Shown here: piece after piece, positions 4,286-64,000 of the stretch
Layout: the number at the start of each line of letters is the position of its first letter
Numbering within the stretch: position 1 is the stretch's first letter
NCBI GenBank assembly: GCA_019054805.1
Contig: JAHQIY010000003.1
Coordinates: 2,170,001-2,234,000, forward strand
DNA: 64,000 bases
From: Brachionus manjavacas
Taxonomy: Eukaryota; Rotifera; Eurotatoria; Ploima; Brachionidae
Direction: 5' to 3'
The notes under the pieces: model-generated
Database searches by the model: none
The model's input: the letters and a program-made list of their open reading frames with translations, nothing else
What the model was told of the DNA's origin: nothing
Position numbers and translations under genes: made by a program

Positions 4286-4300
4286 CTTTTGTCAATTATT

Positions 4301-12652: not shown

Positions 12653-13741
<1,089 letters not shown>

Positions 13742-20050: not shown

Positions 20051-21814
20051 GATCCTTAATTTTTGTAATTTTTTCGCTAAGTATCGTTGATTATTGCAAA
20101 AAGCTTCTAATAGCTTCTAATCGCTTCTAAGCGTTACTTTATAGTTGATTTTTTTTGTTCTTAATTTTCATAATTTAATGGATTTTAAAATTTAATTTTT
20201 TTGAGAACTTATCGTACAAAATATTCGGATCACAGTAAAATAAAATAGTAATCTTAAAATTAGGGTTAAATTGTCATTATGTATTTTTTATTTGTTTTTT
20301 CAATAACCAAAAATATAGTTGATTGAAGAAAATACTACATTAGGTATAAACTTACTCTTCGTAATAATGCTATTCACTAGCGGGGAATGGTATTGAAAAA
20401 ACAATCCGCTTAAGTCTTTAATCATTTATTTTTATCTGTGCTTAGCTTTAAACACACCAGTCGGCATTATTTAGTTGGTTTTTTATTTATCAAAGCTTTA
20501 AAAATATCATAGTCAAAATCGAGTCAAGTCACTAGACAAAATTTTAAAATTTTAAAAAGTCATTTCAGAGACAAAAATAAAATTGGACTTCATTTATAAC
20601 TTCATGTTAAGACTAAAAACTCATGTGGCCACCTAAATTACCTCATGGAAAAATAAAAATTCGAAAATTAATATTGTTTTAAAAATGACTAATTTGCTAT
20701 TTTTATTTCAAATTCTTTGAAATGAATAAAAAAAAATTAAGTAAGATCAAATGATTTCAAAAGTCAGCGACTTGACAATCTATACTTTTGCGCAAGTAAT
20801 TAATAATATTTAAATTAATTTTTTAAATTGCTTAACTTGGTCGGGCTACTTTTTCTTCAGAATTGTAAAAGAGCATTAATCAAATATGTAGTGTTAGATT
20901 TAAGTTCGGCTTTTGGGTCTTTTTTTTAATTTAATTTATTTCCAAGATTTTATTACAAAGGAGCATTAGGTTGGTACCTTATAATCCAATAATTGAAATA
21001 AAAATCCAGTTAAAATGTTTTAGATTTAGCTTTTGACACGCTTTTGGACAAAAAACATCTCATCCGAACAAAAATATTTTAAATTTTGAATGCATGGTCT
21101 AAGATGTAAGATCACGCGATTAGATCAGCACCAAACACTGAAATTTTTTATTTAATGCCTTATCAAGATTCGGACTTAAAACGACTTAGAAAAACTTAGA
21201 AAAGCATCAAATGAATGCTCTCTCAGCTGGAAAAAGTTTGCGGCAACGTGACCAAACAAGCGATATCCCCTATTCTACAAAGCGACGACATGATTTAAAA
21301 AATTTTCGAAATTTAATTTCCACTGAAGAAAAAAAAAAGTCGAAAATGTCAAACAAACAATTTGACAAGTGTATCACAACTTCTTATCAACACCTAAATA
21401 TACAAATATTCCGCCTCCAATCTTTAACATAAATGATGTGAGTACAAATACCGAATACAATGAGTCTATTCATATTTATCATAATTAATACCTAAAAATT
21501 ACGTCAGGACTTTTTATTTTAATCTATATGTTAAGTATTTTTTTTGAGCGGAACGCTACAAAAGAAATTATTAATGCATTCATATGAATGAGATCTTTTT
21601 TAGATTTTCAGGTACCAAATAACTTCGATTCGCTAGTCAACTATTTTTAAAGAATGAGTGTAAATCACAAAAATTCGAAGTAATTCACTAAAAATCAAGG
21701 AAACAATGCTTTCCGGACTTCATGGGCTGATTTATATAACTAGTGATATTAAAAACAATGGTTCTATAAATGAGTTAAATTCCATTCATTATTCTGATCC
21801 ATTTATTAACTGAT
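20051..21814. other. AT-rich intergenic region without recognised gene
   Basis: No conserved protein, RNA or repeat end is seen. A 73-codon frame at 21211-21432 (Lys/Arg-rich) has no recognisable motif and no supporting structure. Confidence 0.4.
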
Positions 21815-23510
<1,696 letters not shown>

Positions 23511-36400: not shown

Positions 36401-36796
36401 TCATCTTCATTATTATTTCCATGTTCTTCTTCTTCTTGATATACTAATTGTTTTTTAGATTCTGCGGTTTGTGTTTCTGATTCTGATTGGCGCTTGATTT
36501 GTACGCTTGTCTTAACGTTATTGAAAGATGGTTTTAGTGACTTATTGGCTTGAGCATATGGTTTTTCTACATTTAATAAGTTAATTTGTTCAAAACTTTT
36601 TTGAAGTTCAGGCGGTAAAACTGGAGTATGCATGCTTTTTGAACTTGGTTCTGAGTACAGTAGAGATTGATTATTTGTTGAACAATTTTCCTGAAAAACT
36701 GGAGTTTTAGGAATATCGAATAAAAAAAATTTGACTCATTTTGGCATTTTTCATCTTCTTCTTCAGGAATAGCAAGATCGCGAATAGCAAAGTGAT
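33482..36796 (-). mobile_element. Non-LTR retrotransposon (Jockey/CR1-like), longest copy H
   Basis: Minus strand, 5' to 3': ORF1 C-terminal part (36633-36364 and upstream), APE-type endonuclease region (about 36300-35560, with stops), linker (35537-34809), RT (34828-34427: PISMARCLGKLLE, QSGFRKHKRTADNL, YFDISKTFDRV, IKAGVPQ), then SPLLFSIYINDIPK and a FADD box read as FAVD near 34350. The C-terminal domain is at 34100-33614. The 3' end carries the family signature and a (TTTA)n tail at 33482-33530. The Asp change and several stops mean it is inactive. ORF1 is truncated at 36796 where an oppositely oriented copy begins. Confidence 0.85.
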
Positions 36797-37500
36797 TAAT
36801 AAGTATCCAAAAGAAGTTGAAATATTGCTTTTCAAATGGAAAATGAAAATTTCTATTGAGAAATCATGTTATATGATCTTTGAGAAAAAAACTAAAGTTA
36901 AAATTAATCTTGACCTTAAAATTAATAATAGTAATTTAAATTAAGAGGAAAAAGTTAAATTTTTAGGAATAACATTAGACTCAAAACTTACTTTTAGCCC
37001 AATGGTGGATGAATTAAAACAGCGTTGTAATTCAAGGCTTAACTTAATAAAATATCTTTCAAATAAAAAATGGGGTCTAAAACCAAAAACACTAGGTAAT
37101 CTTTACAAATCCTTAATAGGATCAATTTTGGATTATTCTTTTCCTTGTTTAAATTCATTCTCAGAAACTAACATCAAAAAAATACAAGTTATTCAAAATT
37201 CAGCAGTTCGATCTATTTTGAAGCTAAAATATGATACCCTCCAATATTATACACCAAGAGGCCTTCAATAAACATAATCTCCTAACAATTTCGAATAGAC
37301 TTTTTGAGTTGAGTGAGAGATATGTCAGGGCAGGATTGAGTCATTCTGTTCCACTGGTCGTCAGACTGGTGGAAGAATATAGAGAAGGTTTCGAATCAAG
37401 ATATATCGAATATCCAACTCCATTGTGTAATTTCTATCTAGCAATTTCCTCTTTTTTTCCTGAACTATCAGATATTTAAACATGTCTTAACTCTAGTTAT
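36797..37500 (+). mobile_element. LINE ORF2 C-terminal fragment, copy I
   Basis: Plus strand from NKYPKEVEILLFKWKMKISIEKS through EEKVKFLGITLDSK to the end of ORF2 (RYIEYPTPLCNFYLAISS...SDI, stop near 37479). One stop at 36943 and one frameshift near 37245. Homologous to copy J; it sits head-to-head with copy H. A T-rich stretch separates it from copy J. Confidence 0.8.
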
Positions 37501-37619
37501 TTAAACATATCGTTCTTAATTTTCTTTTGACTTATTTATCCTTTTTTTAATTTATTTTTTTTTTTTTTTTTTTTTTTCTATTTTACCTTATTTAACTTTA
37601 TTTTATTTCATTTTTTTTT

Positions 37620-39545
37620 TACTGGAATCAAAATTGGTTTGTTTTGATTGAGAAAATGGGAAAAAAACCACTGACAAGTAGACCTTTTGGGAAAAAATTA
37701 AATAAATTTAGAACAAAAAAAGGAACAAATTTGATTCCTAATTTGATTTTAAATGAAAAGGAATTTAAAACTAATGAAGAAAAGGGAAAATGCTTCGGAG
37801 AACTTTTATCTTCAATATTTAGTCCTAACTCTGATTTAATTGATACTGGGAAAGATTTCGAAATACTGAATTCTAACTCTGATTTCTTTAGAAACAATAA
37901 TCAGTGTAACTTTAATGATTCAATTTGCAAAAATGAATTAATTTTGGCTTTAAAAAGATTGAAAAATGATGCGGCACCAGGACCTGACCAAATTCATAAT
38001 TTAATGTTAAAAAACTTACCTAGAAATTCATTAATAGAAATAATAGAACTTTTTAATTTATCTCTTAGAGAAGGTAAAGGCCCGAAAGCGTGGAAAACTT
38101 CGAACATTACTATGATTAAAAAAAAAGCCTCTTCTTTACAAGATCCTTTAAATTATAGACCAATTAGTATAACGAGTTGTTTAGGAAAGCTCCTGGAACG
38201 CATAGTATTCTCAAGATTATACAATTTTTTGGAACAAAATTCACTCCTTATCCAGGAGCAATCTGGATTTAGGAAACACCGGCGAACATCAGATAATCTT
38301 TTCTTTTTAATTCAAAAAATTGTGGAATCATTTAATAGAAAAAAAACAGTTTGCAGCCTTTTTTTTGATATTTTTAAAGCCTTCGATAGGGTTTGGCATG
38401 AAGGTCTACTTTTTAAATTGATTAAAATGAATCCACCTCATTACTTTGATCCTTCTTAGACTCAAGGACATTTAGGGTGAATGTGAATGACCACTTGAGC
38501 GACGAATATCAAATAACTGCAGGTGTTCCTCAGGGCTTAGTAATTAGTCCTCTTTTATTTAGTATATATATTAATGACATCCCAAAAAGAAACAAAACAA
38601 ATAATGAATACTCTCTGCTTTTCGCAGATGATCTAGTTACATTCTTCATTTATAACAACCTAGAAAATAAGATAAATAAATACACCAACTAACTAGAACA
38701 ATGGCTTATTAAATGGAAAATGAAGATATCAGTAGAAAAGTCGTGTTCGGTAGTCTTTTCTAGGTACAAAAAAGAGGGTGATAATCTAAACTTAAAAATC
38801 TATGGAAACAGAATAGTGAGCCAAAAAGAAATCAAGTTTCTTGGTATTAGATTTGATTCCAAGTTAAACTTTAATACACTAGTAGACGAAATTAAAGAAC
38901 GCTGCAACAAAATGTTAAATATTATTAAGATAATGTCAAACAAAAAATGGGGTCTTAATCAAAACACACTAGAAAATTTATATAAATCTTTAGTCGGATA
39001 GATTTTAGACTATTCTTTTCCTTGCTTGAATTCATTTTCAGAAAATAATAACAAAAAACTACAAGCAATTCAGAATACAGCAGTAAGATCTATCCTTAAG
39101 TTAAAATATGATAATCCCTTCAACATCGTACAAAATGAAGCTTTAATAAACAAAAATTACTAACAGTCTCGAATTGTCTTTTTAAGTTGAGTGAGAAATA
39201 TGTTGGGACAGGACTGAGTCATTCTATTCCATTGGTTGAAAGACTGGTGAAAGAATACAAAGAAGGTTTCGAATCAAGATATATTGAATACCCAACTCCA
39301 TTGTGTAATTGCTACCTTACTATTTCTTCTTTTTTTCCTGAAGCTTGAACTATTTAAACATGTGCCACATGTAACAATCTTTTCCAATTTATGTCTTTTC
39401 AACTTTCATTTTTTTAGCATATTTACTCTATCTTGATTCTTTTTTTTATCTAATTTTATTAACTTTAATTTTATTTTTATTTTACTTTTTTTATTTTATT
39501 TTTAATTTATTCTGAAGGAGCTTTAGCTCGGTACAGAAAACAAAA
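37620..39545 (+). mobile_element. LINE ORF2 RT copy J (best preserved catalytic core)
   Basis: ORF2 from the endonuclease-RT linker to the 3' end. 37644-38459 has RLKNDAAPGPDQIHN, NYRPISITSCLGKLLERI, EQSGFRKHRRTSDNL and FFDIFKAFDRVWHEGLLFKL. After a frameshift, 38477-38692 has ITAGVPQGLVISPLLFSIYIND and an intact LLFADDL box. 38720-39001 and onward carry the thumb and C-terminal domain, broken by TAG at 38999. The 3' UTR ends with CTGAAGGAGCTTTAGCTCGG near 39513 and an A/T tail. The endonuclease and ORF1 are absent (5'-truncated). Confidence 0.85.
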
Positions 39546-40084
39546 AATAAATATATCCTAAATAAATTATTTTAGACACTAGAAAAAAACTAAATTAGAC
39601 ACTAAATAAATTTTAACCTAATAAATATATACGACGCTTTAAGCCAGAAAATTCAATATAAACTGGCCTTAATTTAACTTCTCCGGACTGTTGCTATTTT
39701 TTTTTAATAAAAACCTTTATTTGCACTGAACTATTACTATTCTGTTGACCAAATATTATTGCATTTTTATTACGTTTGTTTTTTCCAATTATAACGATTT
39801 AATAATGTAAATTTGTTCAATTGAATGAAGCGCTGGAAAAGCAACATTGCTCTCTGCCTTCTAAATAAGAGATACTCATGATTATAATAAAAACCTTTGC
39901 GTTCCGAATTATCTTGATTTCTTAAAATTATTTTATTGCTATTTCATTTCTATGATGAATTTTATTAAGGACTCTGTATTTGGATTAATATTTTAAATTG
40001 ATATTTTAAATTTGGTTTCTGTCTATTCTCATTTGATTTAAGATTTGAATCTTTCTGTAGTGGTAATTAAAAAAATTAACTAAA

Positions 40085-41765
<1,681 letters not shown>

Positions 41766-42892
41766 TGTATTTGATTTATTTAATTTACTTTTTTTAATGA
41801 TTTCATTTATTTAATCTATTCTGCATTCCCATAACTAATTTTAAACATTTTTAAAAAAAAAACTATTTAAGTTCTAAACATTTTTACAATTAAAATTATT
41901 TTCTATTTATAACTCAAATAAAAAACTAAAAAAGAAATTTAAAAAATTTAAATTTATTAAAAAAATGGTTAAATTTTTTAGTGTTTGAATTACAAAATGT
42001 ATCCAAATAATGTTATAACATTGAAAAAGTGCAGTGTTTCAAATATATTTTTGAGTTTCAAATAACCAATGTTTTTATTGCAAGCATTTTCGTATTTGAA
42101 ATCAAACTTGATTGTGAAATAGAACGAGTTTGACTTCCGAATTTTCATTAGTTTGACTTCCGAATTTCGTAACCAATTAATAAGACAGAAAATCGCGAAT
42201 GCATGCCGTCGAACTTTTTATTTTTATTTTTTTTAAATTTTGAAGTCCTATGGACAAAAAAAAAATTTAAATTTATAATTTATAAAAAAGTTTGAACATA
42301 AATAAAAAAACTGCAAAAATTTTACAAAAAAATTCTTTTTTACGATTTAAGGTAGTATAAATTGATAAAATTCATCTTCAAATTTGAACACTTTTCGTTT
42401 ATTAAAAAAAAAAGAAACCAATACCACTTTAAAAAATTAAAACAAATTCTAATACAACTGTAAGTATTTTCTTCTTTTTAAACTAAAATAGGTATTTTGA
42501 TGATAAAATTCTAATTTTGCAACCAAAAAGCAACTTTGATGATGAATTACCTCGAATTATTTTTGATCGTATGGAGTCAATTAATTTATTTTTTACAAAA
42601 TATTATTAAAAATTTAAATTTTAAGAAGACGATTTTTTTCAAAAATTAAATTAAATTTTATTGAAATAATTTTTTGATGTCTGAAATAGAGTTTAAAAAA
42701 AACAAGCTTTTTAAAGTTTGTCGATTAGGGACTTTATTTTTGGGTGATAAAATTGTTTTTTAACAAATTCGATAAGAATAGTCAAATTCAGATGATTGGT
42801 ACAAATTATCTATGCTTTGTATAAATTTATAAAATCTATGGATAAAAAAACAGTTGTTTTTATAAAATTTAAAAAAAAATTTAATTTAATAA
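41766..42892. other. AT-rich intergenic sequence, no recognised gene
   Basis: No coding pattern, element ends or RNA gene seen. GTTTGACTTCCGAATTT occurs twice near 42129-42166. Confidence 0.45.
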
Positions 42893-44310: not shown

Positions 44311-45371
44311 ATGTTGATAAATGAAAAAAAAAATTTTAATTTCTTGTTTCGAGATGCAAAAAGTATTTTAGCTCTTAAAAGTTTAATTCTTGGCCATTTA
44401 ATTTTAAAAAGATCTCAAAAAAGTTTCCATATATTCTAGTAGCTTTTATTTAATAATTTAATTTTATATAATTACTTCCGATACTAATTCGATCTAATCA
44501 AAAATGAATGAACATGCATCAATGAGTAAATTACTAAATAATACTGAGAACATGTCTCCATCTTGTTTCAACTCGATTTGACTTGAAAAATTACTAGAGA
44601 AAACTAAATGGAAGCTTATTTAAATGAAATTCACTATAAGATATATTTTTGAATAAAGCTAAATGATATAAAAAATCCTTTGCCATACTTTCGATGGACT
44701 TCAAAAATTTTACCTGTGCACATGTCTTTTTCTTATGAATAAGCCATAAAAAAATCAGGGCACAATTCTATTAACAAATCCAAGATCTAAAAGACTAACA
44801 AAACTATGACAAAATAAAATTAATTAAAAAAACTAAATTAAGTTATTCAAATAATTTTCCCTTTCAATATTTGAAAAATCATTTTTATTTCACGTTTTGA
44901 TTTATTTTAATTATATAAGAAAGCAAAATTTTTTTTCGATATACACCTAGTTATATAATACTTAATATATATATATATATATATCATTTAATTTGAAAAT
45001 TTTGATATAATTATAAAATTTTCTTGTAAATCAAATTTGCAAAAATATATTTTTGAAAAAAAAACCAAAATTTGTATACAAACTTTAAAATGATTTATTT
45101 CCGTCTGATTCGAATTGAACCACGAATAACTTGCCAAAGAAAATCAATTGAAAAATAAAAATTTTACTATTCAATTCACTTATTTATCCTTATAATATAT
45201 TTCAAAAAATAAACTAGAAAATTTTAATTAAATAAATAATAACGAAAAATAAAAAACACTTTCACTCTTGTGTTGATGTGGATAAATGAAGCATGACACT
45301 TTGACAACTATTTTAACCGGTTCGAAATTTTATTACCAAGTCTTTCAAAAAATTAAAAAAAATCACTAAAA
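44311..45371. other. AT-rich upstream region of PV-repeat gene 4
   Basis: No gene seen. A short (TA)n run lies at 44967-44985. This interval holds the presumed promoter of the gene at 45372. Confidence 0.4.
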
Positions 45372-49234
<3,863 letters not shown>

Positions 49235-50675: not shown

Positions 50676-50954
50676 GGCATCTTGAAGTTTAGGATCAAAA
50701 AAATCAAATCAAAATTTTTTTTCTTTATAAAATTTGAATGATACTTGATTAAATCTCTCTGCAAATTGCTAACTAATGCAAAAAACATGCTAAATATTAA
50801 ATGAGGCTCTGCAAAAACTCTCTCAATTTTGCAGGAAAATGCACTTAATTAAAAAGTATTGAATTCAATTGCGTAATTTAATTGCAGAGTTTTTAATATA
50901 TCTACTATTTAGCATGTTTGATCTGATTTTTTTGATCCCTAACTTCAAGATGCC
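50676..50954. mobile_element. Small foldback MITE (279 bp)
   Basis: GGCATCTTGAAGTTTAGGATC at the left and GATCCCTAACTTCAAGATGCC at the right are inverted repeats. Flanks TTTTTTCAC (50667-50675) and TTTTTTCAG (50955-50963) match at 8 of 9 bases, so a 9-bp target duplication is likely. The interior contains CTCTGCAAAAACTCTCTC. Confidence 0.8.
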
Positions 50955-50963
50955 TTTTTTCAG

Positions 50964-51944
50964 GATTATACTTAAACGCTTTTCTCCAATTTTTTTTGCA
51001 AAACAAAAATATTTTTAAAAGTTTTAATATATCATTTAAAAGACCTTGGTTATTATTGAAATGGATCTTTTAAGAGCACAGTGTGATGTCATGAACTTTA
51101 AAGTGTCGACCAGTTTGTCGCTTTTTTTTTTACTTTAAATTCTTTCTAGCACTAATATTCCTTTTTTTATCACCAAAAAATCTCACTTTTCTAAAAATAC
51201 TTTTATGAAACAAAATAACCTCTTGCAAACAAAAATACTAAATGAATATAAAATTACTTCTTTAATATATAATTATTACAAAAAAATGATTGATCTCGAA
51301 GCGACATTAAATGAAACATCGATCGAAGATAAGATTTCATCTGTTAACGAAATAGGCATTGAAGTTGACAATCAGACCTACAACTCCAATTCTTGTAATC
51401 GCCCAAACAGATGAAAAAGAATTTACTGGAACGTTGAAATTATATTTAATAATTACAATGAGGCCGTCATAAGTATTGTAAAAGTAAAAGTTTTTATTTT
51501 TACTAAAATATTTTAAGACAACAAAAGTATTTTTGTTCTAAGAGAGTTTTTTTAGACCAAAAAAGTTCGCTAAAATCACAAGAGTATTTTTAAATGCAAT
51601 GAGAAATTTTAGAAAAATGATGATTTTTGGTGAAAGAAAAATTCTAAACCTTTTTTTTTCCTTTTTCTTGTTGTTCTATACCTTTCTTGCTTCATCATCT
51701 ATTTTGATGATGAACAACGTTTTTAGAGTCTTGAATGCCTATTTCGTTATTGACATTAGTGTAATCTCCTGATTTTTGCGTGATTTTGACCAGTTCTGTC
51801 GACTGCAAGTTTAGCTCCCAGAGCTCAATCCATTTGCTTCATTTTTCAGCGTGCTGAGAGGCATCTTTTCTTGGGTTGAGGTTGGATCATTATGTCATTT
51901 TGTGATAATGTGTTAATCCTAGCTCTAAAAGAATGAGAGGCTCT
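50964..51944. other. Intergenic, no recognised gene
   Basis: A 69-codon frame at 51205-51414 (Asn/Ile/Glu-rich) has no recognisable motif; it might be the start of the transposase remnant that follows. Confidence 0.3.
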
Positions 51945-52130
51945 AATTTGTTAAAATTGAAGAGTCCCTTAATCACTGGTTAAAATCAGTTATGTCATTT
52001 AAATATTACACTTAACGGTCCATTGATTCAAGCCCAGGCTATTAAATATGCAACTATGTTAAATCAAACTGATTTTAAAGCTAGCAATGGATGGTTAAAC
52101 GGATTTAAATAAAGGCATAATATTACCTTG
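51945..52130 (+). pseudogene. CENP-B/Tigger-type helix-turn-helix remnant
   Basis: EESLNHWLKSVMSF, then after a shift LNITLNGPLIQAQAIKYA, then DFKASNGWLNGFK, stop, RHNITLKT. The order (LxxWL, NGPxIQxKA, FxASxGWLxxFKxRH) is the Tc5/CENP-B DNA-binding domain of pogo/Tigger transposases. A frameshift and a TAA show it is dead; no DDE core follows before the inverted repeat at 52376. Confidence 0.65.
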
Positions 52131-52375
52131 AAAACTATTGCATAGATAACTTCGATTGTTTTTTTCCAAAAGAACGAAGACTGTTCTTTATTCATTGATC
52201 AGTTGTCTTAAATGGATCAATTTTGTAGCGTCGATCAGTCTTTTCAAATTTAAATTATTTTTCTTTATAAACTATTTATTTTTTTGGCATTGTGAATTTT
52301 GATACAAAAAAACAAATACAAAATATAAAAAATGCCAAAGCTCAGCTTCTAATGTAGCAAAACATGTTCTGTAAA

Positions 52376-52705
52376 TAGTAGCAACTGATACATATACTGA
52401 TTCTGCAAAACTCTGCAATTTATCTGCAAAATTCAGAATTTTGTGAATTTTAGTACAAAATCAGAAACAAAATATAAAATACACCATAGATTTAATTTGG
52501 ACAAGCTAAAAAATATTCTGTAAAATGAAGCAACTGGTACATTCTCTGTACCACCACTTAATGTAAAAATAGTAATCTAAAATTCACAATCTAATTTAGC
52601 ATTTAAACCAGTGCTTAGGCAACCTAAAAAATAGAATTTAAAACTCTTGTTATATTTTAAATGTTTCTTGAAAATATTTTTTTTATTTAAAAAAATATTG
52701 AAAAC
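52376..52705 (+). repeat. Left terminal inverted repeat of the large element
   Basis: Starts TAGTAGCAACTGATACATAT; includes CTGCAAAACTCTGCAATTTA and CATTCTCTGTACCACCACTT. Nearly perfect inverted match to the last 228 bases of the window, weaker over a further 100 bp. Two related units (AGCAACTGxTACAT) sit in direct order. Confidence 0.85.
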
Positions 52706-52945
52706 AAAAAATTTTGAAAATTACTGCGCTTTTGATATTAAAAATATTTTTTTTGGTCTCATGCTAATCATTTTTAAAAACAAAAATTAAAGTATGATAC
52801 AACGGGATCAACATTTTTCAATTTGCATGAATTTATATATTTTATTAACAAAATTTATATTAAATGATAATTTTTAAATTCGAAAAATAAAAAAAAAAAC
52901 GAAAATCTGAAATGAATATTTAAGAAGTAATTAAATAATCCGACA

Positions 52946-55103
52946 TTATGAATCAGCATTACTTGAATCTTTAGCTTTTTCAATCTCTTCCTAAAAAATC
53001 GAAAATGGTAAATAATATCTTACAACCTTGATGGTTATGCAAATCATTAATTGATCAAAATATTTAACTTCCTTTTTTTTTGAAAGAAAATGAAAAAGCT
53101 TTTGACTTATTCAAGAGAAGGGAGGGTTCATGCCGAATTATATTAAAAACAATTCTCTTTACGTGAATATTATTAGCAATGAAAACTTGAAAACTAAAAT
53201 TTTACTCACAAAATTTAATGAGTAAAATTTTATCAAATTTTCGTTTAAAATAAAAAGAAAAATTTTTTTGATTATAAGATATTTTTTTATTCTTACACTT
53301 CATCCTCTAGATGAGATTTAGCTGCATCACACTGAGCTTTCAATGCCACGAGTTTTTTAGTCTTATTTTCTCTTTAAAATATTTTTTAAATACATCTGAT
53401 ATCCTTTTTTTTTAATTATTTTTCTTCTTTTAACTCTTGGCCTTCTTCCCGTAAATTTTCAGTCGTCTCCATTAATCTTTTTCTTAAATAAAAGATTTTC
53501 ATCAGAGCAAAAAATATTTCATTTTTTTCTTTTCATTTGAATTTCTTTAGAATGGTTAATTTTGAAAGCTGGTCTGATATTTCTGATTTTTCAGAACAGT
53601 TTGAGAACATTTTCTGATTATTTCAAATTTCAATTCATTAATATTAAATTTTTTTCTTTTTATTTGAGTTAAAATTACTCGTGCAATATTTTGCTTTTAT
53701 GTATTAATTCCAGTTCTATAATTTCTTTTTCTTCTTTTTCCTTTTGAAATCTCATTTCGCTTGATTCAATTTTTAATTTAAAGCTTTCTTCTACATTTAA
53801 ATGTTCTTGAATCACTCTTTTTTTTTTGATTTTCTTCTTATAGTTTTTCATTTTCTTCTAGTTGCTTGAAAAGATTTTAGGAAAATAAAATTTTTTTAAA
53901 TAAATTCAAAAATCTAAACCTTATTAAAGAACGGACAGTTTTTGATTACAAAGTGTGATGATAATCCTCTTTTAATGTTTCCTTTGCCATTACATTCTTT
54001 AATTAGAGTACATGACCTAGTTCTTTTTTCTTTAAGTAATCATTTTCTTGAATAAACTTCTCAACATCTTTTTTTAAAGACTGTATTGTGTGATCTTGCC
54101 TTTCTCTTTCTTTTTTCTCCCTCTCATTTCTAAAAATAAACATTTTTATTTTATTTTTAATATCAGTCAGTCGATTAAGTGATTCGTACTTTTGCCTTAA
54201 GTTTTCTTTTAATGCTTCATTTTCATTTTGAAGGATTTCCTCATTTAAAAAACATTCAGTATAAAATTGTTTCCATTGATCAGTATTTGATCTTAATGCA
54301 TCCTTTTAAGAAGATAAGATTTCATCATCGATGAAATAAAAATTAATTACTCGTAAGTTATCAATCTCTGATTCCATATCATCATTTTGATGATTCATAT
54401 GTGAAGCATTTTGATTTTCGGAAAAGCTTCTGTTCAAAAGAGGAGTTCAAACGATTGAAAAATTTCGTCGATCTAAATAAATTTAAAATTTTGTTTATTA
54501 AATACTCAAAAATACTCACAGTATTTGGATCATCCCGCTTTTCAGCAACATTTTCAAAAAATTTTTTAAAAAATTGAAAATTCCATTTGAAATATTCTCA
54601 ACTAGCTCAAATGATTTATCTGTAACGTCCTCACTTATTTAAATATTAGAAATTAAAATAAAAAACATATATAACTATAAATTCATTTTTATATTTTATT
54701 CGGTCCTAGACTCTACACCTGGCTCCGTCTTACAATTCTTAAGATAAAATTGTTAAAAATTTTATAAACATAAACTTTAAAAAACAGACCACTAATTTCT
54801 CTATAATAGAAGCATCTAAACTATTAGAATGTATATCTTCGACAAATTAAAAGAACTGTTTGCATTCTTTTGGACTCACCTTCACTTTGATACATTTTTT
54901 TGGTCCATCATCAATTTTCACTAGCTGAGATTCGACCAGATCGCTTTTTAATGAGGATGAAATTTCATATGTTTTAACAATTATTTTATCCTTTGATTCA
55001 TTATTGAATTCAACTTTGGAATAATTCTCATTGTCTGATACATCCTGAATTTTAACGTATGGATCACATTTTGAATTTGATCTTTTTTTTTGTTTTGGGA
55101 CAT
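52946..55103 (-). pseudogene. Coiled-coil companion gene of the large element (multi-exon, damaged)
   Basis: Starts MSQNKKKRSNSKCDPYVKI at 55103. A polar segment runs to KKCIKVKVSPKECKQFF, then an in-frame TAA, then FVEDIHSNSLDASIIEKL. Further left are Glu/Lys coiled-coil exons: DMESEIDNLR, SNTDQWKQFYTECFLNEEIL, EREKKERERQDHTIQSLKKDV, VEESFKLKIESSEMRFQKEK, then KKLVALKAQCDAAKSHLEDE with a GTAAGA donor. The last exon is EEIEKAKDSSNADS with TAA at 52946-52948, after a TTTTTAG acceptor. Several frames do not connect cleanly, so exon borders are uncertain and at least one stop is real. Homology unknown. Confidence 0.55.
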
Positions 55104-55454
55104 TTTAGAATTTAAAATATTTAAATATTGTATAGTTTTTTGACTAAATTACAGTTTTAAAATCTATTTTAATTTTAAATTAATTTTAGAAGTTTAAAAA
55201 TTTAATTTAAAGACTCTGTGGATAAAAAGGCCAAAAATATATCTAGTTTAACTGAATTAAAATTTTAATTAGCTTCTTAAGTGAGCACACTCGCTTGATA
55301 GCCCAATTATCAAATGTTTTTCTTATATACTTTTAGTAAAATAGGGTTAATAATCTTTTTACCATCGTCATTATTTATTTTAAATTTACAATTTAATTTA
55401 ACAGAATTATTTGTTAAATATTGATTAAAAAAAAAAAAAACTAAATCATTTATT

Positions 55455-58400
55455 TTAAAAACAAATTGGACATGACTGATTTAATTCATAATTTTCAATA
55501 CACGATTGGTGAAATTTATGAAAGCAATCAATTTTCGGAATATTTTAGAATGTTTTGAATTCTGAACTACATTTGGAACAGAAATTTTCAATAGATTTTT
55601 TTCTGAAGATACGAATCATTTCTGAACTCAATTTTTGTAGTGAACTATTCAACGTATTGAAAAAGAGCGGTTTCCCTCTTCAAGACATTTTAGAAAGAAG
55701 CTCACAAATACCCCACAATTATTAGGATCATTTTGAAGTGAATGATCACATTTTGCTTTTTTCAAATTTCTATTATTCAGTGATTCAACGATAGAAGCAA
55801 ACCTCTTTTAAGAAAATATATACAGATACATTTTAGATGAAATACTGACTTAGACTTACTTTCAGTTTTCAAATGATTTTTTCTGATTATCTATTTTTCT
55901 CCCAATGGATCAACATAGTATAATTTACTTCCGTTTAATTCAAAAAACATCATTGACCAATGATTTGAGTTTTCATTAATAAAACCGAAAATTACATCAA
56001 AATTTTAAACTTGAATAATTTTTTAATTAGATCTTTTACTTATTAATAAGAAACCTAATTCAAAATAACTTCCAATTCCAATTTTACTATTTAATTGTCC
56101 TTCATTAAAAATCTGAGTTGAATGAAAACAGTCGAGAATTAAAATTTTTTTTGAGAGTTACTAACAACGCATTTTGCAGAGCCATTAATTCCTAAATTTA
56201 GAAATAAATAAATTTATCTTAATAATTTTCGAAATATTTACATTATAATTTAGCCATTTATTTGTAAAAATATCGTCAATTGCATTTTTTCGGGTTAAAA
56301 AATTTTCAATTTTAAGATAGTTGAAATTTTCCAAATTATTTTCATTTTTTTTTGTCAATGTCCATTGGAGCTTCTTTTTGACCCTTTGAAGAATGTCAAC
56401 AATAAAGTTTTCCTTAAATTTTGGTATATCATCCTCATTGTTTTGCTTGTCAATATTGAAAACAACATTATGGTAACCAACACAATTTTTTGCCGGTTTC
56501 TTAAAATTCCACATTTCTCTTTGGTCTAAATGTTCTCTCTTTCGAAGTTTGCCGAGCCTAATATTCGCTATGTCTTCATAGTTTTCCTTATACTTATGAT
56601 TAATATAGAAATACAAAGGCGTAGAAATATCACTTAGGAATAGTAAACGACAAAATCGAACACGCTTATTTATATTTAAGACACTATTTTTCAAATTTTT
56701 AAACCAGCTCTCAACGTTATTATTGAAAAACGAGTTTTACCATGAAATTCGCTATTAATCATTAAACCTGTCCATAAAGGCGCCAAATGAAGCTTCTTTT
56801 TTATTATTTCAAAAAGTCTAGGTGAATAAAATATGTTCTTTAGCATCAAGACATTGTTTTCATTAATATTATCAATAATTTTCTGATTTTCTCTTAAAAG
56901 ATCGAGAAAAAATGGGCAAAAGGTGATTCCTGCAATAAATTTTGATTTTATTTTCGAAAAAGAAAATTTGTTTCTTAATATCATTTTACATCTTATTCTT
57001 ATCATAGAATATGTTATTTTACCATTTTGTATTCCTAGTGGATAAAAAGAATTCTAGCTTTTGGATTTTTTGGGTTAAAATTTCGTTTTCGAATTTTGAA
57101 AAGAAAAAAATTTGAATGCATTTAAAAATTTGGCAAAGTTCCTCGATTGATGTGCTATTCTGAAGTGAGCTAAAACTAAATTTTCACATGACCATTTGAT
57201 TGTAAACTTCCACTACCAACAATTTTTTCGGTTTCATCAATAACATTTTTTAGCAAATGAGTCGAACAAATATAGACACATGTTTTTATTCGTAAAGAGG
57301 CCCACATGTTTTTTTTGACTATGAGTTCGTATGAAATACTAAATAATCCATGATTTCTAGATTATTTAAAGCCCTCAAAGATGCATTAATGAAAAATTTC
57401 GGGTATCGAAAAAAAGAATATTCATGAAATCTTTCGATATTTTTTTTTTAAATCAGTAAATTGTTATGGTGTCATTTGAACTTGATAAAAAATTGACGAT
57501 AGGGATAAAGTTTTTAAAAGTCTGATCTTGGCAAGCAATAGAATATTAAAAAAATTTCTTATTGATCCTTTAGCTTTATCTTTAATTTACCAGTTGCATC
57601 AAAAAAACCAAAATGGGTTGTTTTCTTGAATAACACCCCACATTTTTGCCTGTTTATCTGATACCAAAAGCGCGCCAAATGAATTTAAAACCACTTCTTG
57701 TATGTATCCTTGAATTAAAAACTTTGATGTTTTTGGTATCAAAAGATCAAATATTAGTTTTGTAGCGTCAGAATACATTCGAAGATCATTAGTTAGCAGA
57801 AATATGTGTCTTAATTGACTTTTGAGTTTTCATTGGAAGCATAACTAATTTCACGTTGTTCTAAATCTTCATCTTCTAAAAAATCGTTTTCGGTTTAAAA
57901 ATTTTTAAACACTTAGAATAAATATCTTTTTGAATGGCTTTTCATTAAATTCTCGATGGATTATTTGATAAAATTGAAAAATTACTTTTCCTTTTACTTT
58001 ATCTTCTTTTGCTGGTCTTTCAGGTCTTTCTTTTTGAAAGCCAGGATTTTTCATTGAAAAAATTCTCCCAAGTTCTATTGTAAAAGAATTATAAAACTAA
58101 AAATGAAAATTTTTTTTAGTTAAAATAAATTATACGGTTTGAAATCGATCTCGATCTCGATCTTTTTATTTGCAAATCTAATCGATTCCATTTCAACTTC
58201 CTTTTTATCATTTTGTTTGATGGTGAAGATGCCTTGAACGTATCAAAGCCAATAATGTTTCTTGAATAAATTGAATCATCCATTTGAAAGCCTGGAAGTT
58301 TAATAATATTGACTTAATTTATAAATTTAAAAAATTTTTTAAATATTCTTTTAATTTTATGTTAAACTTACTGGTGCAATATTCGTTCATTTCATCAATG

Positions 58401-58981
58401 TTCTCAATGCAAAGCTTATTTCCCATTAGCTTTTTGCATTTAATGAAACAGTTTTTAATTCGTTCCTTATCCAGATCACGATTGGACATCTATTACAAAA
58501 AAATTTAAAGATAAATAAAATTAGTAGATAAAAAATACTTTTTTGGAATCACAAACGGTACTTTATGTTCGGTTTTCTGATTACAAAGTTTCACTCTTAA
58601 CAAAAAATAATTAAAAATTTACCAAAAGAAAGAGTAATTTTAAATTTACCTCTAAGTCAAGTTCATGACCTAAATTTAAGGACATCTGAAACTGCGTCCT
58701 CATATTCCCTTTTTTTCAAAGTTTCTTTAACATCGTTCTCCACCCAAAAATTAACCAAGCCTTTTTCTTTCGATAAGTTGGCTATTTCTTCGTCACTTTT
58801 GTCGAATTTTTTAACCTTTTTCTAATTAAATTAAAATAATGAAAAAAAGGATACCTTTCATTAATTCTTTGAATTTTCGAGCGTTTAATGCGCCAACCCC
58901 ATGAATTTCGTTTAATTCATGAAAAGCTTTCCGAAGCAGCGCTCTGATATCCCTATTATTGAGTAACGCTGGGTTAACCAT
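55455..58981 (-). pseudogene. DDE-type transposase fused to Ulp1/SENP-like protease and RING-H2 finger, decaying
   Basis: Start MVNPALLNNRDIRALLRKAFHE at 58981; short GT-AG introns. Transposase marks: GFFDATGK near 57600 (first Asp type), TCVYICSTHLLKNVI near 57250-57290, LAPLWTGLM near 56790, then NNVESWFKNLKNSVL at 56718-56670 (Glu type). The Ulp1 part follows: TNKWLNYNV, ILDCFHSTQIFN, SNHWSMMFFELNG (His at 55957-55962), YYVDPLG (Asp), an intron, QNDPNNCGVFVSFF (Gln and Cys, 55735-55700). The RING-H2 comes last: FCSKCSSEF ... DCFHKFHQSC ... SCPICF. Frameshifts (near 58850, 56735, 55630) and stops, including TAG after VDPLGEK, disable it. Ulp1-like domains occur in several eukaryotic DNA transposons; the superfamily here is not assigned. 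Confidence 0.7.
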
Positions 58982-60159
58982 GTTTGTAATTTTGTATTTT
59001 ATCTAAAGAAAAAAATGAAATCGATTTATAAAAGAGGTGGTTTAAACAGTTTTTTATAACTGTAAATAGAAATAAAAATTTTTTTATTAAAAATCATTTA
59101 TTAACAAGTGATTCAAAAATATAAATTAAAAAGTGAATTTATGAATTCACGGTGACAAGCAGATAAAAGAGTGGTATTTGAGACAGCATCGATTTATTAT
59201 GATGTTTTTTCAATTTCACGAAAAATAGCAATTGATTTAATGAACTAAAAAAGATTTAATTTAAAAAATATTTATTTATCAAACTAAATTTAATTTTAAA
59301 AAATTTAAAAATTAAAAAAAAAAACAAAAAATTAAGAATTTAACAACAAGAATTATAAAAAAAAATCATAAAAATCATTTGTTTTGATAACCGTTCGTGT
59401 TTTAAAAAAAAAATGGTTGGTTTGCGTCCATTGCACTAATTTTTTCGTTTTTGTTTTCGTTTTTTCGATTTGAAATTTACCTAGGACAGACACCAACCGA
59501 GTTAACTTCGAGCACAAGACTTCCTCCTATCAGCTCTTTAGTAAGTAGTCTCACAATAGACCGATTGGTGGGGGGGGGGGGGGGGGGGTAGCCCTAATTT
59601 TAAAATAATGTGCAAGAATATTTACGTACGGTCCCACGCGTACGGCCCGAAAATGTCCTAAGTACAAAGCTATAAAATTCATTTTCCCTCTAATGGCTAT
59701 GATATTTATCTACCATTTATAAAAAAGGATTTAGATTATAATTAAATTAAGATATTTGTTGACTACTAACTTCTTTAAATTTTAATTAAATTTTCAATTT
59801 TTTAATTAAATAAGTAATTTTACGAACTTGAATTTTTTTTTTATTCTTAATAAACCAAAATAAATTTTTTATAAAAAATTTGAAAATTAAATAAGTTTTT
59901 TTCAAAAGAAATTTAAAATAATTAGAGAGTTCAAAAGAAAAATATCAGCCATCAGTTTAGAGGTTAATAAAACGATTTTTATAAAAACTTCCAATAATTT
60001 ATACTAACTGAAAAAGCAGTCCATCGGTGTTGAAATTTGATTTGAATATCGATAAGTGCTAAAATTGACAAAACTTAATAAAGAAATTTTTTGTTAATTG
60101 TTAAATAAAAAAAAGATTAAATAAAAAAAATAAATAATTTTTTTCTTAATTTTTACATG
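58982..60159. other. Non-coding interior of the large element, with a 19-G run
   Basis: No gene seen. A run of 19 G lies at 59570-59588 in otherwise AT-rich DNA, followed by TAGCCCTAATTTT and a locally GC-richer stretch (TACGGTCCCACGCGTACGGC near 59626). It may mark an old element end or an assembly or polymerase slippage site. Confidence 0.45.
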
Positions 60160-60600
60160 AAAATCTGACATTTTTTTAAAGTTAAATTTCTCGAAGAATG
60201 AAATCAGGCTTTTGAATAAAACATAAAAAATCAATTTCACTTCTCTCATACAAGTTATGTAATTGATTTTCCAAGTATTACTCAAAGAGTTGACTTATTT
60301 CAATTAAATTCACTATGGGTAGGTTTTTAACATTAGATTGTGAATACGATCTAGATCACACCCTGTTAGTTAGCTTTTTTAAGGCATATTTAGTTTCTAA
60401 AAGAGTGATAGACTCGTTTAAATTGTTTTGTACCTTATTTTCTAGGAAATCTCTTACCTCATGTGATATTTCACAATTATCTTCTGTTCAACGAAATCGA
60501 AGTGAGGACTATACTAAAAGTAAAAGTAAATACTTGATTCAAATATTTAAAGAAAAATTTGAAATTTTTTCAAACTATTAATGAGCATTGAAATCCAAAC
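60160..60600 (-). mobile_element. LINE linker/RT fragment inside the large element
   Basis: Minus strand: ISHEVRDFLENKVQNNLNES, TLLETKYALKKLTN, then in a shifted frame CDLDRIHNLMLK and VKNLPIVNLIEISQLFE, then TWKINYIT. Same order as ALKRLKNDAAPGPDQIHNLM ... KNLP ... WKTSNIT in copy J. Truncated both ends. Confidence 0.65.
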
Positions 60601-60794
60601 CACAAGTTTTTTTGTTTTTTTTTTAACAAAAATCCAAATCGAAATCAGTAATTAATTTTAAACTAATTAAAAAAAATGATTGTCTAAATCTGGTTTAAAA
60701 AACAAGAAGAAAAGACAAGATACATTTGAATTGAGCGCTAGTATTGAGTATTTAGTTAAAAGATTTTATAAAAAATAAAATTCAAAAAAAAAAA

Positions 60795-61828
60795 TCGCAA
60801 TTAATACCTCCAAAATGCATGCCGCATGCTCTTGGTCCATTTTTTGCTGCATCAGTGACTTTTTAGCATCCCATTTCTGTAAAGTAGAGCCTGTACCAAA
60901 TCCAGAACCTTTTGCCCAGTAAAGATTATTCTTTACCTCGCTAGTCAGTCCCGAAGTTTCACTTTAGCTGACAATACAGTCCGAATCAAATTTTGGAAGA
61001 AATGCGGCTCTTTTTTGCCGATTCGGATGATGGCTCATGTCGGTCAAAATGTCCAAAATAAATGCCAAATTTTGGTTCTTGTGAATAAAATTGGTCAATT
61101 CGGAACGACTTTCACTGAGTTTGCTTTCGGCAAGTAAGCCTTTGAGCGAGCTGAATGGCATAATGGACAAGCTGAGTCCGAATTCGTCTTCTTTGCTGCG
61201 ACTAGCGCCAAGAACCAGCTTTAGAATCGACTGAGCTTGCTTCTTGTTCTTCATCATTATGGACGCATAGCCAGGTATTTTGAGAAATAGGCCGAATGCA
61301 ATGAATGGGTGAGGCGGCATGGTCATTTTTTCCCGCGATGTTTTAGGCTGCTGGTCGGGCTGACTAGTGGCTCGGTCTTTGACGGTTATGTTCAATAGGG
61401 GCTGGTGTATGAACGGAATTATAATAGGCAATCGTTCGGCGAGCACGGTCAGTCCATTTGATTTGACGTAGGTTTCCAGCGGCGAACTAAATTGACTCGG
61501 CGCCAAAGTCACTTGTGATTGATGCGACATGTCCTCGAAGCAAATGTCGATGTCTTAGCTGTTCACATGGCGCACTCCACATGTGTGAGTGTAAAAATCG
61601 GTCACTGCCTCCACGCTAAAATCGCTGGCTATTGTGTAAATTTGCTACTCAATGCGAATGTAGTAGCAAATTGATTTGAGTTCGTTGGTGGAGTGCGCTT
61701 TGACTTGGTCTTTTTTGTCGCTTTTCATTTTGTCTAGAAAATCTTTTAGCTCGTTCAGCGAGTCGATGGAGCAGATGGCTTCAGGCTAAGCAGAGAATTT
61801 TCTGGGCCGAGTTGTCACAAGACAGGCT
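60795..61828 (-). pseudogene. BIRC6: BIRC6 (BRUCE) fragment, captured, with in-frame stops
   Basis: One reading frame on the minus strand runs through AICSIDSLNELKDFL, LSTFxSPLE-like sequence, AERLPIIIPFIHQPLL, FIAFGLFLKIPGYASIMMK, KKQAQSILKLVLGA, DILTDMSHHPN, and NLYWAKGSGFGTGST ... MDQEHAACILEVL. This order (AFSLFLRLPGYAExxL, LLRLVLG, LYWAKGTGFGTGST, EEHVTCLLQVL) is characteristic of the large E2/E3 anti-apoptotic protein BIRC6, from its middle to late region, far from the BIR and UBC domains. Frame is kept over about 330 codons but four stops interrupt it (TAG near 61790, TAG near 61648, TAA near 61556, TAA near 60965). It breaks off at 60795 in AT-rich DNA and abuts the dynein fragment at 61829. 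Confidence 0.8.
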
Positions 61829-62260
61829 TCAAATGAATGCCTTTTTTGATTGCTTCTTGATTTTTTTCAATTTTTTCAAATCAGGAAACAAATTTTTCAT
61901 CAAATTTCCAAAAAGAAGAGAGTCTTCTTTCAGAAACTTTGGCAAATGAGTGTCATTCAAAGCTTGTATTAAAATTTGCGACTCTTGATCCTTCCTAAGT
62001 GATGTACTTTCCAATTTATTCTCATAAAGAAATACTTTTTTCACCTATCCGGCCATAAGAATAACAGCCTTGATAGTTCTCAGCCCAAAATTGTAATGAT
62101 CTTGTTGAGACAGTTGACGCGAGGCCAAATGATATAAAGTGAATATTTTGGTGGCCAAAATTTCGGCCGATGTAAAGCCCACACTAAACAGGATTAACTG
62201 TGCAATGAGTGCAAAATCTGGGACCATCATTGCCACTCGTACAAATGTGATAAATTATTT
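61829..62260 (-). pseudogene. Dynein heavy chain fragment (AAA1-AAA2 region), captured
   Basis: Minus strand: RVAMMVPDFALIAQLILFSVGF, KIFTLYHLASRQLSQQDHYNFGL, RTIKAVILMAG, one in-frame TAG at about 62046, then ILIQALNDTHLPKFLKEDSLLF and NLMKNLFPDL, ending at TGA 61829. The block AMMVPDYALIAE ... LSSQDHYDFGMRAVKSVL ... LRALRDxNLPKFLxxDxxLF ... DLFP is highly conserved in dynein heavy chains between AAA1 and AAA2. Only about 135 codons of a protein normally over 4,000 aa are present. Axonemal or cytoplasmic type not decided. Confidence 0.85.
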
Positions 62261-62344
62261 CCTTCGTACTTGCATTCAAGCACCACAACCTTAAATTAAT
62301 TTTTCAATTTAATTTGGAAGTATGAAATTAAATCATTCCGAATC

Positions 62345-63529
62345 ATTTTTACTTTAAGTTGGATTGACAGCTTTGTTTCTTGTTAGAAATGAGCCTTGGT
62401 GCATTGACAACAACATCCTTTAAAATAAAATAAAGAAATAAAAAAGAAATTTTTTAATTTAAATATACTGCTTCGTCATCGTCTTCCTCAGACCTGGCGG
62501 TAATTTTAGGACCATTGCGGTTTTAATCAATTACTTCTTTTCTCAAACGATTTAAAAAATATCCTAATAAAAACTGGTGCTCTAACAACTTCTCAGCGCT
62601 GGGTCTTTTTTTAGGTTCTTAGTCAAAGCTACCTTGATAAAATTGTGAAAATTTGAGGACCACTTTTCCTTATTTTTGAGAGTGTGCGGCTTGAAACCGG
62701 ATTTGGACATAGAGCTCGCATAGGATGAAGGAAAAAAGGGTGGTTAAGCTCAGCCAATTCGATCGTGGTTATACAAACCGCCCATGTGCCACACTGCTGA
62801 TTATATCATTCTTTTCGCACAACAACAGCCACTTCCGGGGCCATCCAATACGGCGTTCCAAAAAATGACTTCGCTTTGCCAGAGTAGCTGTTATTTGTGC
62901 CGATATCTGCTAGTTTAACATCACCATCATTAGTAAGCAAAATATTGGCTCTTTTATGTCCCGATACATTTTGCCCATGTTGTGCAAATATTGCAGTCCT
63001 CTAAGAGTCTCATGGCCCACATAACCATTCTGGTTTTAGGTAAGAGCACCAATAACTTGGAACAAAATTTAGGCTGATTTTTTAAATCATAAAAAAGTCT
63101 ACTTTTGTAAATATATTGAAGAAAGCCACCACCACAAAATTCCATAGCTATCCAAGTGTTTGTCTCTTCTTTGGAAAAAAAAAAGCTGATATTTTTGATC
63201 TAATTTATGCTTACCTCAAATAGGATTCAAAATATGCAATTATATTCGGGTGTTTGCAGTCCCTAAGCAAGCAAATCTCTTGTTGGAAGACAGTAAAGTC
63301 ATCGCCTCTGAAAATAGATTAGATAAGAAGGATATAGTTGTTAGAGTTGGATTCTGGTACCTGGTTCTAGTTTAACAGCTTTGATGGCGGCAAGTTCAGC
63401 TGAGTGAATGTTTCTGGTCTTGTAAACTTAGCCATAAGTGTCACTGCGAACCCGTTGTATCAATTCATCATCATCTTGCGAGTTCTTTCGCTAAATCACG
63501 CTCTAATCGACCCCTAAGTTGTTGCTCAT
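62345..63529 (-). pseudogene. MAP4K3/5-like (GCK-family) kinase, 5' part, captured, inactivated
   Basis: From ATG at 63529: DDDELIQRVRSDTYG, stop, VYKTRNIHSAELAAIKAVKLEPG; intron 63301-63360; [22 protein letters not shown], intron, WIAMEFCGGGFLQYIYK, about 47-bp intron, GALT, stop, [18 protein letters not shown]. Then KMYRDIK (HRD altered to YRD), a frameshift, [17 protein letters not shown] (DFG altered to DIG), [10 protein letters not shown], stop, and a decayed C-lobe; after it DDDEA and VVNAPRLIS. The order and [20 protein letters not shown] signatures identify the MAP4K3/5 group. At least six stops (two TAG before the domain), frameshifts and altered catalytic motifs rule out activity. 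Introns are retained, so it was copied as genomic DNA. It ends near 62345, next to the dynein fragment. Confidence 0.85.
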
Positions 63530-63664
63530 CGGTTATTTCAATATGTTTGACATTTTGGACTGGATTCTGCGCCTTAGTTAAAGCTCATCTTGCAAACCTC
63601 CGGTAAAATACATACATATTCTTGGTTGAATTTTTAATCACAGTGCGCATCTATTTTCTAAATA

Positions 63665-64000
63665 TTTATTGACAATTTTTTTTTGAAATAAAAAAATATT
63701 TTAAAGACACATTTAAAAAAATATCACAAAAGCTTAAAATTCTATTTTTTAGGTTGACTAAACTATGGTTTAAATGCTAAGTTAGATTGTGAATTTTAGA
63801 TTATTATTTTTAAATTAAGTGGTGGTACAGAGAATGTACCAGTTGCTACATTTTACAGAATATTTTTTAGCTTGTCCAAATTAAATCTATGGTGTATTTT
63901 ATATTTTGTTTCTGATTTTGTACTAAAATTCACAAAATTCTGAATTTTGCAGATAAATTGCAGAGTTTTGCAGAATCAGTATATGTATCAGTTGCTACTA
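63665..64000 (-). repeat. Right terminal inverted repeat of the large element (cut by window end)
   Basis: Inverted match to 52376-52705, ending ATATGTATCAGTTGCTACTA at 64000. The true element end may be outside the window. Confidence 0.85.

What the first reader, a model, noticed from the sequence alone, without database searches (positions are those of the whole stretch)
52376..64000. Large transposon-like unit carrying transposase-Ulp1-RING, a coiled-coil gene and three captured host-gene fragments
Seen: an inverted repeat of about 330 bp at both ends; inside, a decaying transposase gene and abutting fragments of MAP4K, dynein heavy chain and BIRC6 in one orientation. Known: Pack-MULEs, Helitrons and some CACTA elements capture gene pieces in plants. 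Inference: this animal element does the same. Large gene-capturing TIR elements are little described in small invertebrates.
Basis: partly seen in the sequence, partly recalled or inferred. Interest (0 to 1): 0.9.

Follow-up and report, generated by a model that had tools for sequence, protein, structure and literature searches.

The report
Decayed animal transposon with host-gene scraps
A stretch of animal DNA bounded by two inverted copies of one repeat holds the remains of a transposon-like gene and pieces of three ordinary host genes, most likely an old jumping element that picked up host DNA, a process already reported in animals; its true ends and any other copies could not be examined here.

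Summary
The inverted arms are real (52376-52721 against 63653-64000, 92.6% identical), but 52376 is not an element end. The right arm is cut by the window end, and the left arm continues outward to at least 52261 as a second copy of a ~150-nt subrepeat (0 of 300 shuffles). Outer borders and target duplication are unseen, and the proposed 20-mer border tag is internal. The three host fragments are real, in one orientation, beside the right arm: MAP4K3-type kinase, axonemal dynein (DNAH6-like) and BIRC6. MAP4K and dynein keep 46-55-nt GT-AG introns, so genomic DNA was captured. A C48 (Ulp1) peptidase and a RING finger are supported. The 'transposase' core matches no transposase profile; its DDE/CxxH-like motifs are my reading. 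All these genes are broken. Best explanation: a decayed, foldback-like, Mutator-style TIR element carrying pieces of three genes (0.55). Gene capture by TIR elements in animals, Ulp1 in animal Mutators, RING beside a MULE transposase, and internally repeated TIRs are each in print, so this is an unusually multi-source member of a known kind. No host genome was held, so other copies and parental genes could not be sought.

The parts
52261..52721 (+). Left arm of the inverted repeat, including the outward extension 52261-52375; true outer end unknown
   Evidence: 52376-52721 pairs with 63653-64000 at 92.6%; 52261-52375 aligns with 52401-52524, 0 of 300 shuffles as good
52290..52393 (+). Outer copy of the ~150-nt arm subrepeat (crosses the claimed border 52376)
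   Evidence: 72% to 52441-52542 (E 1.1e-11) and 73% to the right arm 63935-63834 (E 1.5e-12)
52441..52542 (+). Inner copy of the arm subrepeat
63653..64000 (-). Right arm of the inverted repeat, cut by the end of the window
53162..54597 (-).
   Evidence: ORFs; three ORFs scanned, no Pfam match at a cut-off
56188..59002 (-). Broken transposase-like gene; FDATG, CSTH and NNNVESWF motifs suggest a DDE transposase of the CxxH kind (motif rule recalled, not a profile match). That the ORFs above 57817 belong to the same gene is inferred from order only
   Evidence: three-frame reading; 10 frame segments and 3 in-frame stops over 57817-56239; no transposase match in Pfam, NCBIfam or PDB
55652..56157 (-). 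C48 (Ulp1-like) cysteine peptidase domain, broken
   Evidence: PF02902, E 4.5e-7, 30.4 bits against a cut-off of 20.7
55458..55610 (-). RING-type zinc finger
   Evidence: ORF 55458-55544: PF00097 22.4 bits (cut-off 21), PF13923 E 7.8e-6 just below its cut-off; joined piece: PF13639 E 1.5e-4, below its cut-off
60808..61770 (-). BIRC6 fragment (aligned to PDB-chain residues about 4052-4331); followed by a possible splice donor GTATTAATTG
   Evidence: PDB 8atm E 2.7e-31; edge read; 4 frame segments, 2 stops
61862..62259 (-). Axonemal dynein heavy chain (DNAH6-like) AAA1 fragment with one apparent retained intron, 62044-61995
   Evidence: PDB 9d2f E 9.1e-31; PF12774 E 7.7e-24; intron
62373..63481 (-). 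MAP4K3-type kinase-domain fragment with four apparent introns: 63360-63306, 63214-63169, 63102-63056, 62468-62418
   Evidence: PDB 5j5t E 1.1e-123; introns; 10 segments and 4 in-frame stops

Best explanation
This is one old, inactivated DNA transposon of a metazoan. Its terminal inverted repeats are long and internally repeated (foldback-like); the right one is cut by the window end. Between them lie the wreck of its own gene (a transposase-like core followed by an Ulp1/C48 peptidase and a RING finger) and, against the right repeat, a 2.7-kb block of three host-gene pieces copied as genomic DNA with introns. Inferred mechanism: a break or stalled replication fork inside the element was repaired by copying from unlinked host loci (gap filling or template switching), in successive rounds or in one multi-switch event; both copying models are published for animal Pack-TIRs (PMC8277862). 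Shown here: arms, subrepeat, C48, RING, host fragments, apparent introns, decay. Inferred: that the arms are the ends of one element, that the gene is its transposase, that the source loci are unlinked, and how capture happened. Nothing shows that the captured block moved or works.
For: Inverted arms at 92.6% with no third copy in 64 kb. All recognised protein remains between them (C48, RING, kinase, dynein, BIRC6) lie on one strand. The kinase homology begins 172 nt inside the inner edge of the right arm (63481 against 63653). The captured fragments have G+C 0.35-0.44 against 0.23-0.27 for the arms and the rest of the unit and 0.29 for the left flank, as expected for coding DNA brought in. 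Apparent retained GT-AG introns argue against a retrotransposed origin of the MAP4K and dynein pieces. Ulp1 in animal Mutators and RING beside a MULE transposase are in print.
Against: No outer end, no target duplication, no second copy, no empty site. The transposase core matches no transposase profile, so nothing ties gene and arms to one family. Disablements differ between blocks (about 10 per kb for MAP4K, about 4-5 per kb for BIRC6 and dynein, my count), which may mean different ages.
Confidence: 0.55

Rival explanations
1. Two separate elements of one repeat family (whole short elements, or foldback-like units) inserted in opposite orientation about 11 kb apart; what lies between is ordinary genomic debris, or was moved as a composite.
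For: The arm's outer end is not seen, so each arm could belong to its own short element; the arm contains subrepeats, as in foldback elements, which are recalled to flank large host segments in flies. A Tc5-type HTH fragment (PF03221, E 3.1e-9) lies about 150 nt left of the known arm, so debris of other elements is present.
Against: No third copy of the arm was found in the 64-kb window, and the recognised protein remains between the arms share one orientation.
Confidence: 0.22
2. The MAP4K-dynein-BIRC6 block is a host pseudogene mosaic made by ordinary repair or segmental duplication, and the repeat arm landed next to it by chance.
For: The three fragments are decayed, and two have apparent introns, as in segmental duplicates; dynein and BIRC6 are very long genes, so random sampling of the genome would hit them often.
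Against: Pieces of three genes abut within 2.7 kb in one orientation right beside the arm, inside the inverted pair.
Confidence: 0.15
3. Assembly artefact (chimeric or palindromic contig end).
For: The right arm ends exactly at the end of the window.
Against: The arms are 92.6%, not 100%, identical and diverge further inward (81% over the inner 59 nt); the window has no N; the window length alone explains the cut.
Confidence: 0.05

Closest known systems
Animal Pack-TIRs, including the Drosophila Ssk-FB4 Pack-MULE (PMC8277862; abstract, sections 7, 8 and 14, and passages read)
   Same: Host sequence enclosed between TIRs in animals; Ssk-FB4 is drawn with its gene's introns and sits in FB4 TIRs of ~700 bp
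   Different: The reference-genome survey took internal sequence of 100-5,000 bp with one unambiguous parental copy; here there are pieces of three genes beside a transposase-like gene. TSD and parental copies, which define them, could not be tested here
Mutator elements with Ulp1 in hydra and lancelet, and Ginger1-Ulp1 (PMC2836005; passages read)
   Same: Ulp1/C48 domain in an animal DNA transposon
   Different: Window core not matched to a MULE or integrase profile; the word RING does not occur in that text
Ghost MULE clade (PMC6446971; passages and section 5 read)
   Same: RING finger ORF beside a MULE transposase in an invertebrate (its most complete element)
   Different: No TIRs were found for Ghost; neither 'C48' nor 'peptidase' occurs in that text; sequence relationship not testable here
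Tm1 Mutator/foldback family of root-knot nematodes (PMC3169594; abstract and passages read)
   Same: Composite TIRs with internal repeats, in a small invertebrate
   Different: Its putative transposase (496 aa) is described as FLYWCH plus MULE, Phantom subclass; captured pieces of several host genes were not described in the passages seen
Arthropod MULEs (PMC13359780; passages read)
   Same: TIRs of 13-1,193 bp, elements with a DDE transposase and zinc finger
   Different: Complete elements were 1,875-9,972 bp; the unit here is at least 11.7 kb if it is one element
Plant MULEs with multiple (tandem) TIRs and Pack-MULEs (PMC3310237; abstract and outline read)
   Same: Gene fragments between long TIRs; tandem TIRs
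   Different: Plants; amplification shown by multiple copies

Membership tests
Pack-TIR / Pack-MULE | Non-TE host sequence between two inverted repeats of one family | tested here: met
Pack-TIR / Pack-MULE | DNA-level capture (introns kept) | tested here: met
   (apparent introns, my reading guided by the alignments; five in two of the three fragments)
Pack-TIR / Pack-MULE | Element ends and target-site duplication | not testable with these tools
   right arm cut at 64000; no genome held
Pack-TIR / Pack-MULE | Parental copy elsewhere without the TE | not testable with these tools
   no genome held; BIRC6 and dynein ORFs found no relative in viral contigs
Mutator (MULE) superfamily | MULE transposase domain (PF10551) | tested here: not met
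   joined core, Pfam at E up to 1: only PF22462 below its cut-off. The core is badly decayed; I therefore do not file it as a MULE, only as Mutator-like in layout
Mutator (MULE) superfamily | DDE triad with CxxH motif | tested here: inconclusive
   FDATG, FINASL (N where the second D is expected), CSTH and NNNVESWF read by eye; motif rule recalled, no profile support
Mutator (MULE) superfamily | 8-10 bp TSD | not testable with these tools
   outer ends not in the window
Foldback-like TIR elements | Long TIRs with internal direct repeats | tested here: met
   two subrepeat units in the left arm; arm at least 461 nt; only one unit can be seen in the cut right arm
Ghost MULE clade | Transposase phylogeny within Ghost | not testable with these tools
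   no Ghost sequence at hand
Helitron | No terminal inverted repeats; Rep-helicase protein | tested here: not met
   long inverted arms; the interior ORFs that were scanned gave no helicase or Rep match in Pfam; not every ORF was scanned

The most novel reading that the evidence does not exclude
A foldback-type, Ulp1- and RING-bearing TIR element of a ciliated small invertebrate that still carried its own transposase gene while repeatedly collecting genomic pieces of unlinked host genes: an animal counterpart of multi-gene Pack-MULEs, and possibly the first view of TIRs for a Ghost-like lineage, for which none were found in PMC6446971.
Probability: 0.25. Interest if true: 0.6.

Novelty: new member of a known kind. 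Interest (0 to 1): 0.4.

Why it matters
If the unit is one element, it shows that a TIR transposon in a small invertebrate can accumulate pieces of three host genes beside its own gene. The published survey of 100 animal genomes would have missed it, because it took internal sequences under 5 kb with one unambiguous parental copy. That would make animal gene shuffling by large TIR elements testable in one genome.

Tried and rejected
Tried without result: the arm 20-mer and a second arm 23-mer in viral contigs (0 matches each); relatives of the 183-aa ORF, the joined core, the BIRC6 ORF and the dynein ORF in viral contigs (0 confirmed of 5, 3, 7 and 12 pattern matches); a back-translated motif pattern in viral contigs (17 stretches) and genome contigs (103 stretches), where tblastn of the joined core against all 120 loci gave one match, at E 0.17; Rfam (gathering threshold) and tRNA scans of the window (0 and 0); the stretch just upstream of the kinase as a fourth captured gene (no PDB match at E up to 10; no Pfam match at E up to 0.1). 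Sub-threshold, apparently unrelated Pfam or NCBIfam matches were seen for interior pieces (for example GAIN E 0.12 and DivIVA E 0.027, Ctf19_RWD2 E 0.0027, PRK09898 E 0.13, Fer4_20 E 0.031) and set aside.

Rejected: 52376 as an element border (the subrepeat continues outward); retrogene capture for MAP4K and dynein (introns kept); Helitron (long inverted arms).

Not done: structure prediction of the transposase pieces (short and decayed, expected to be poor); a scan of every interior ORF.
Full report
Observation. The window holds an inverted pair, 52376-52721 against 63653-64000, 92.6% identical over 350 columns, with 96% over the outer 283 nt and 81% over the next 59 nt inward. Self-comparison at E 1e-6 showed no third copy in the 64 kb, and nhmmer gave the two arms and one match at E 3.8. 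A permissive blastn lists very many weak AT-rich matches (best outside the arms: 59% over 276 columns, E 4.3e-6; output cut), which sets the noise level of this AT-rich sequence. The pair itself (E 5e-141) is far beyond chance.

The borders, however, are not where the finding puts them. The right arm runs into the last base of the window, so the matching left coordinate (52376) only marks where the window stops. Left of 52376 the sequence goes on as arm: 52290-52393 is 72% identical to 52441-52542 and 73% to the right arm at 63935-63834 (E 1e-11 to 1e-12). In a shuffle test the arm unit (52376-52545) aligned to 52261-52375 better than all 300 dinucleotide-preserving shuffles of 51500-52375, and likewise for 52200-52375; three control regions gave 67, 148 and 189 of 300 shuffles at or above the observed score. 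The left arm therefore holds at least two tandem subrepeats of about 150 nt and is at least 461 nt long. TAGTAGCAACTGATACATAT lies inside it. Outer ends, target duplication and total size are unknown. A fragment of a Tc5-type HTH domain (PF03221, E 3.1e-9, + strand, 51984-52109) lies about 150 nt outside the known arm and may be inside or outside the element.

Interior. On the minus strand, 63481-62373 encodes a MAP4K3-type kinase domain and tail (best of 2216 PDB sequences matched, 60 shown: MAP4K3, E 1.1e-123). 62259-61862 encodes the AAA1 end of an axonemal dynein heavy chain (84 matched, 60 shown; DNAH6 best at E 9.1e-31, other axonemal chains close behind). 61770-60808 encodes BIRC6 around residues 4052-4331 of the PDB chain (E 2.7e-31). 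Apparent GT-AG introns of 46-55 nt remain at 63360-63306, 63214-63169, 63102-63056 and 62468-62418, with one of 50 nt at 62044-61995 in the dynein piece. The BIRC6 piece is followed by a donor-like GTATTAATTG at 60807; I saw no intron inside it. These joins are my reading of the frames, guided by the alignments; the third and fourth MAP4K introns are the less certain ones. The fragments have G+C 0.35-0.44; the arms, the transposase block, the spacer and the 52.7-55.1 kb block have 0.23-0.27, and the left flank 45-52 kb has 0.29.

The gene at 59.0-55.45 kb. A C48 peptidase (PF02902, E 4.5e-7, above its cut-off) and a RING finger (PF00097 just above its cut-off on the single ORF; PF13639 below its cut-off on the joined piece) are supported. 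The part before them has motifs that look like a DDE transposase of the CxxH kind (FDATG; CSTH; NNNVESWF; an N where the second D would stand). That is a recalled motif rule. No transposase profile matched at E up to 1 in Pfam or NCBIfam, and no PDB chain at E up to 10. The core needs 10 frame segments, with 3 in-frame stops, over 1.58 kb.

Decay. By my count, MAP4K has about 6 frameshifts (introns not counted) and 4 stops in about 0.9 kb of coding sequence, BIRC6 2 frameshifts and 2 stops in about 1 kb, and dynein 1 frameshift plus a stop codon just before its intron in about 0.35 kb. The element cannot make these proteins as it stands. The uneven decay may mean stepwise capture, but the counts are too small to say.

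What it is. The simplest account is one decayed TIR element with foldback-like ends and an Ulp1/RING transposon gene, which had copied pieces of three host genes as genomic DNA. That the arms are the two ends of one element is inferred. The strongest rival is two separate members of the repeat family lying in opposite orientation. Both remain open because the record stops inside the right arm and no genome is held. The host is probably an animal with motile cilia and very short introns, judging from the axonemal dynein and the intron sizes; a rotifer is my guess, not a result.

Prior work. Tan et al. 2021 (PMC8277862; abstract, sections 7, 8 and 14 and passages read) report 370 Pack-TIRs in 100 animal genomes, with internal sequence limited to 100-5,000 bp (a 10,000-bp limit was also tried in humans without further cases), no Pack-MULE in the reference genomes, and the Ssk-FB4 Pack-MULE in flies, drawn with the introns of Ssk; they propose gap filling and replication-fork switching. 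Bao et al. 2010 (PMC2836005; passages read) note Ulp1 in Mutator elements of hydra and lancelet. Dupeyron et al. 2019 (PMC6446971; passages and section 5 read) describe Ghost MULEs, one with a RING ORF, and no TIRs found. Gross and Williamson 2011 (PMC3169594; abstract and passages read) describe Mutator/foldback Tm1 with internally repeated TIRs. Sela et al. 2008 (PMC2572040; abstract read) report two host sequences inside the ends of C. elegans Turmoil-1. Passages of an arthropod MULE survey (PMC13359780) give complete elements of 1.9-10.0 kb, and of a review of giant transposons (PMC6431247) say that none of the first-reported Pack-MULEs exceeded 7 kb. The six literature searches run showed me titles and abstract beginnings of 20 of 132, 10 of 10, 15 of 73, 15 of 60, 10 of 16 and 3 of 3 papers; none of those described an animal element with pieces of three genes beside a transposase-Ulp1-RING gene. 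They cover open-licence papers only, so this is no proof of absence.

Verdict. The pieces are real, the borders claimed are not, and the kind is known. The unusual points are the three sources and the size of the unit (at least 11.7 kb, if it is one element). Interest 0.4.

Noticed in passing
7854-11489: A 1.82-kb tandem duplication, 99.9% identical. The first copy's ORFs match a MULE transposase domain (PF10551, E 6.9e-4) and a SWIM finger (PF04434, E 7.8e-4), both below their cut-offs; the second copy's ORFs read almost the same. A recent duplication of another transposon gene.
   Followed up: partly
51984-52109: Tc5/CENP-B type HTH fragment (PF03221, E 3.1e-9, + strand) just outside the left arm.
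   Followed up: partly
12402-13744, 21809-23104, 40081-41785, 45357-46097, 48527-49234: Five loci with ORFs made of [11 protein letters not shown]-type repeats; three are 94-96% alike, and the other two share a 377-nt stretch at 92.6%.
   Followed up: no
33600-39500: Several LINE-like reverse transcriptase fragments in both orientations, 71-82% alike; the one tested at 37596-38459 carries PF00078.
   Followed up: no
47751-48097 and 46358-46714: Two imperfect palindromes of about 350 nt each, MITE-like in shape.
   Followed up: no
50676-50954: A 38-nt, 92% inverted repeat with a 203-nt loop left of the unit.
   Followed up: no
63474-63584: An ORF piece between the right arm and the kinase fragment with no PDB or Pfam match; could be a fourth captured piece or the kinase gene's own N-terminus.
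   Followed up: partly
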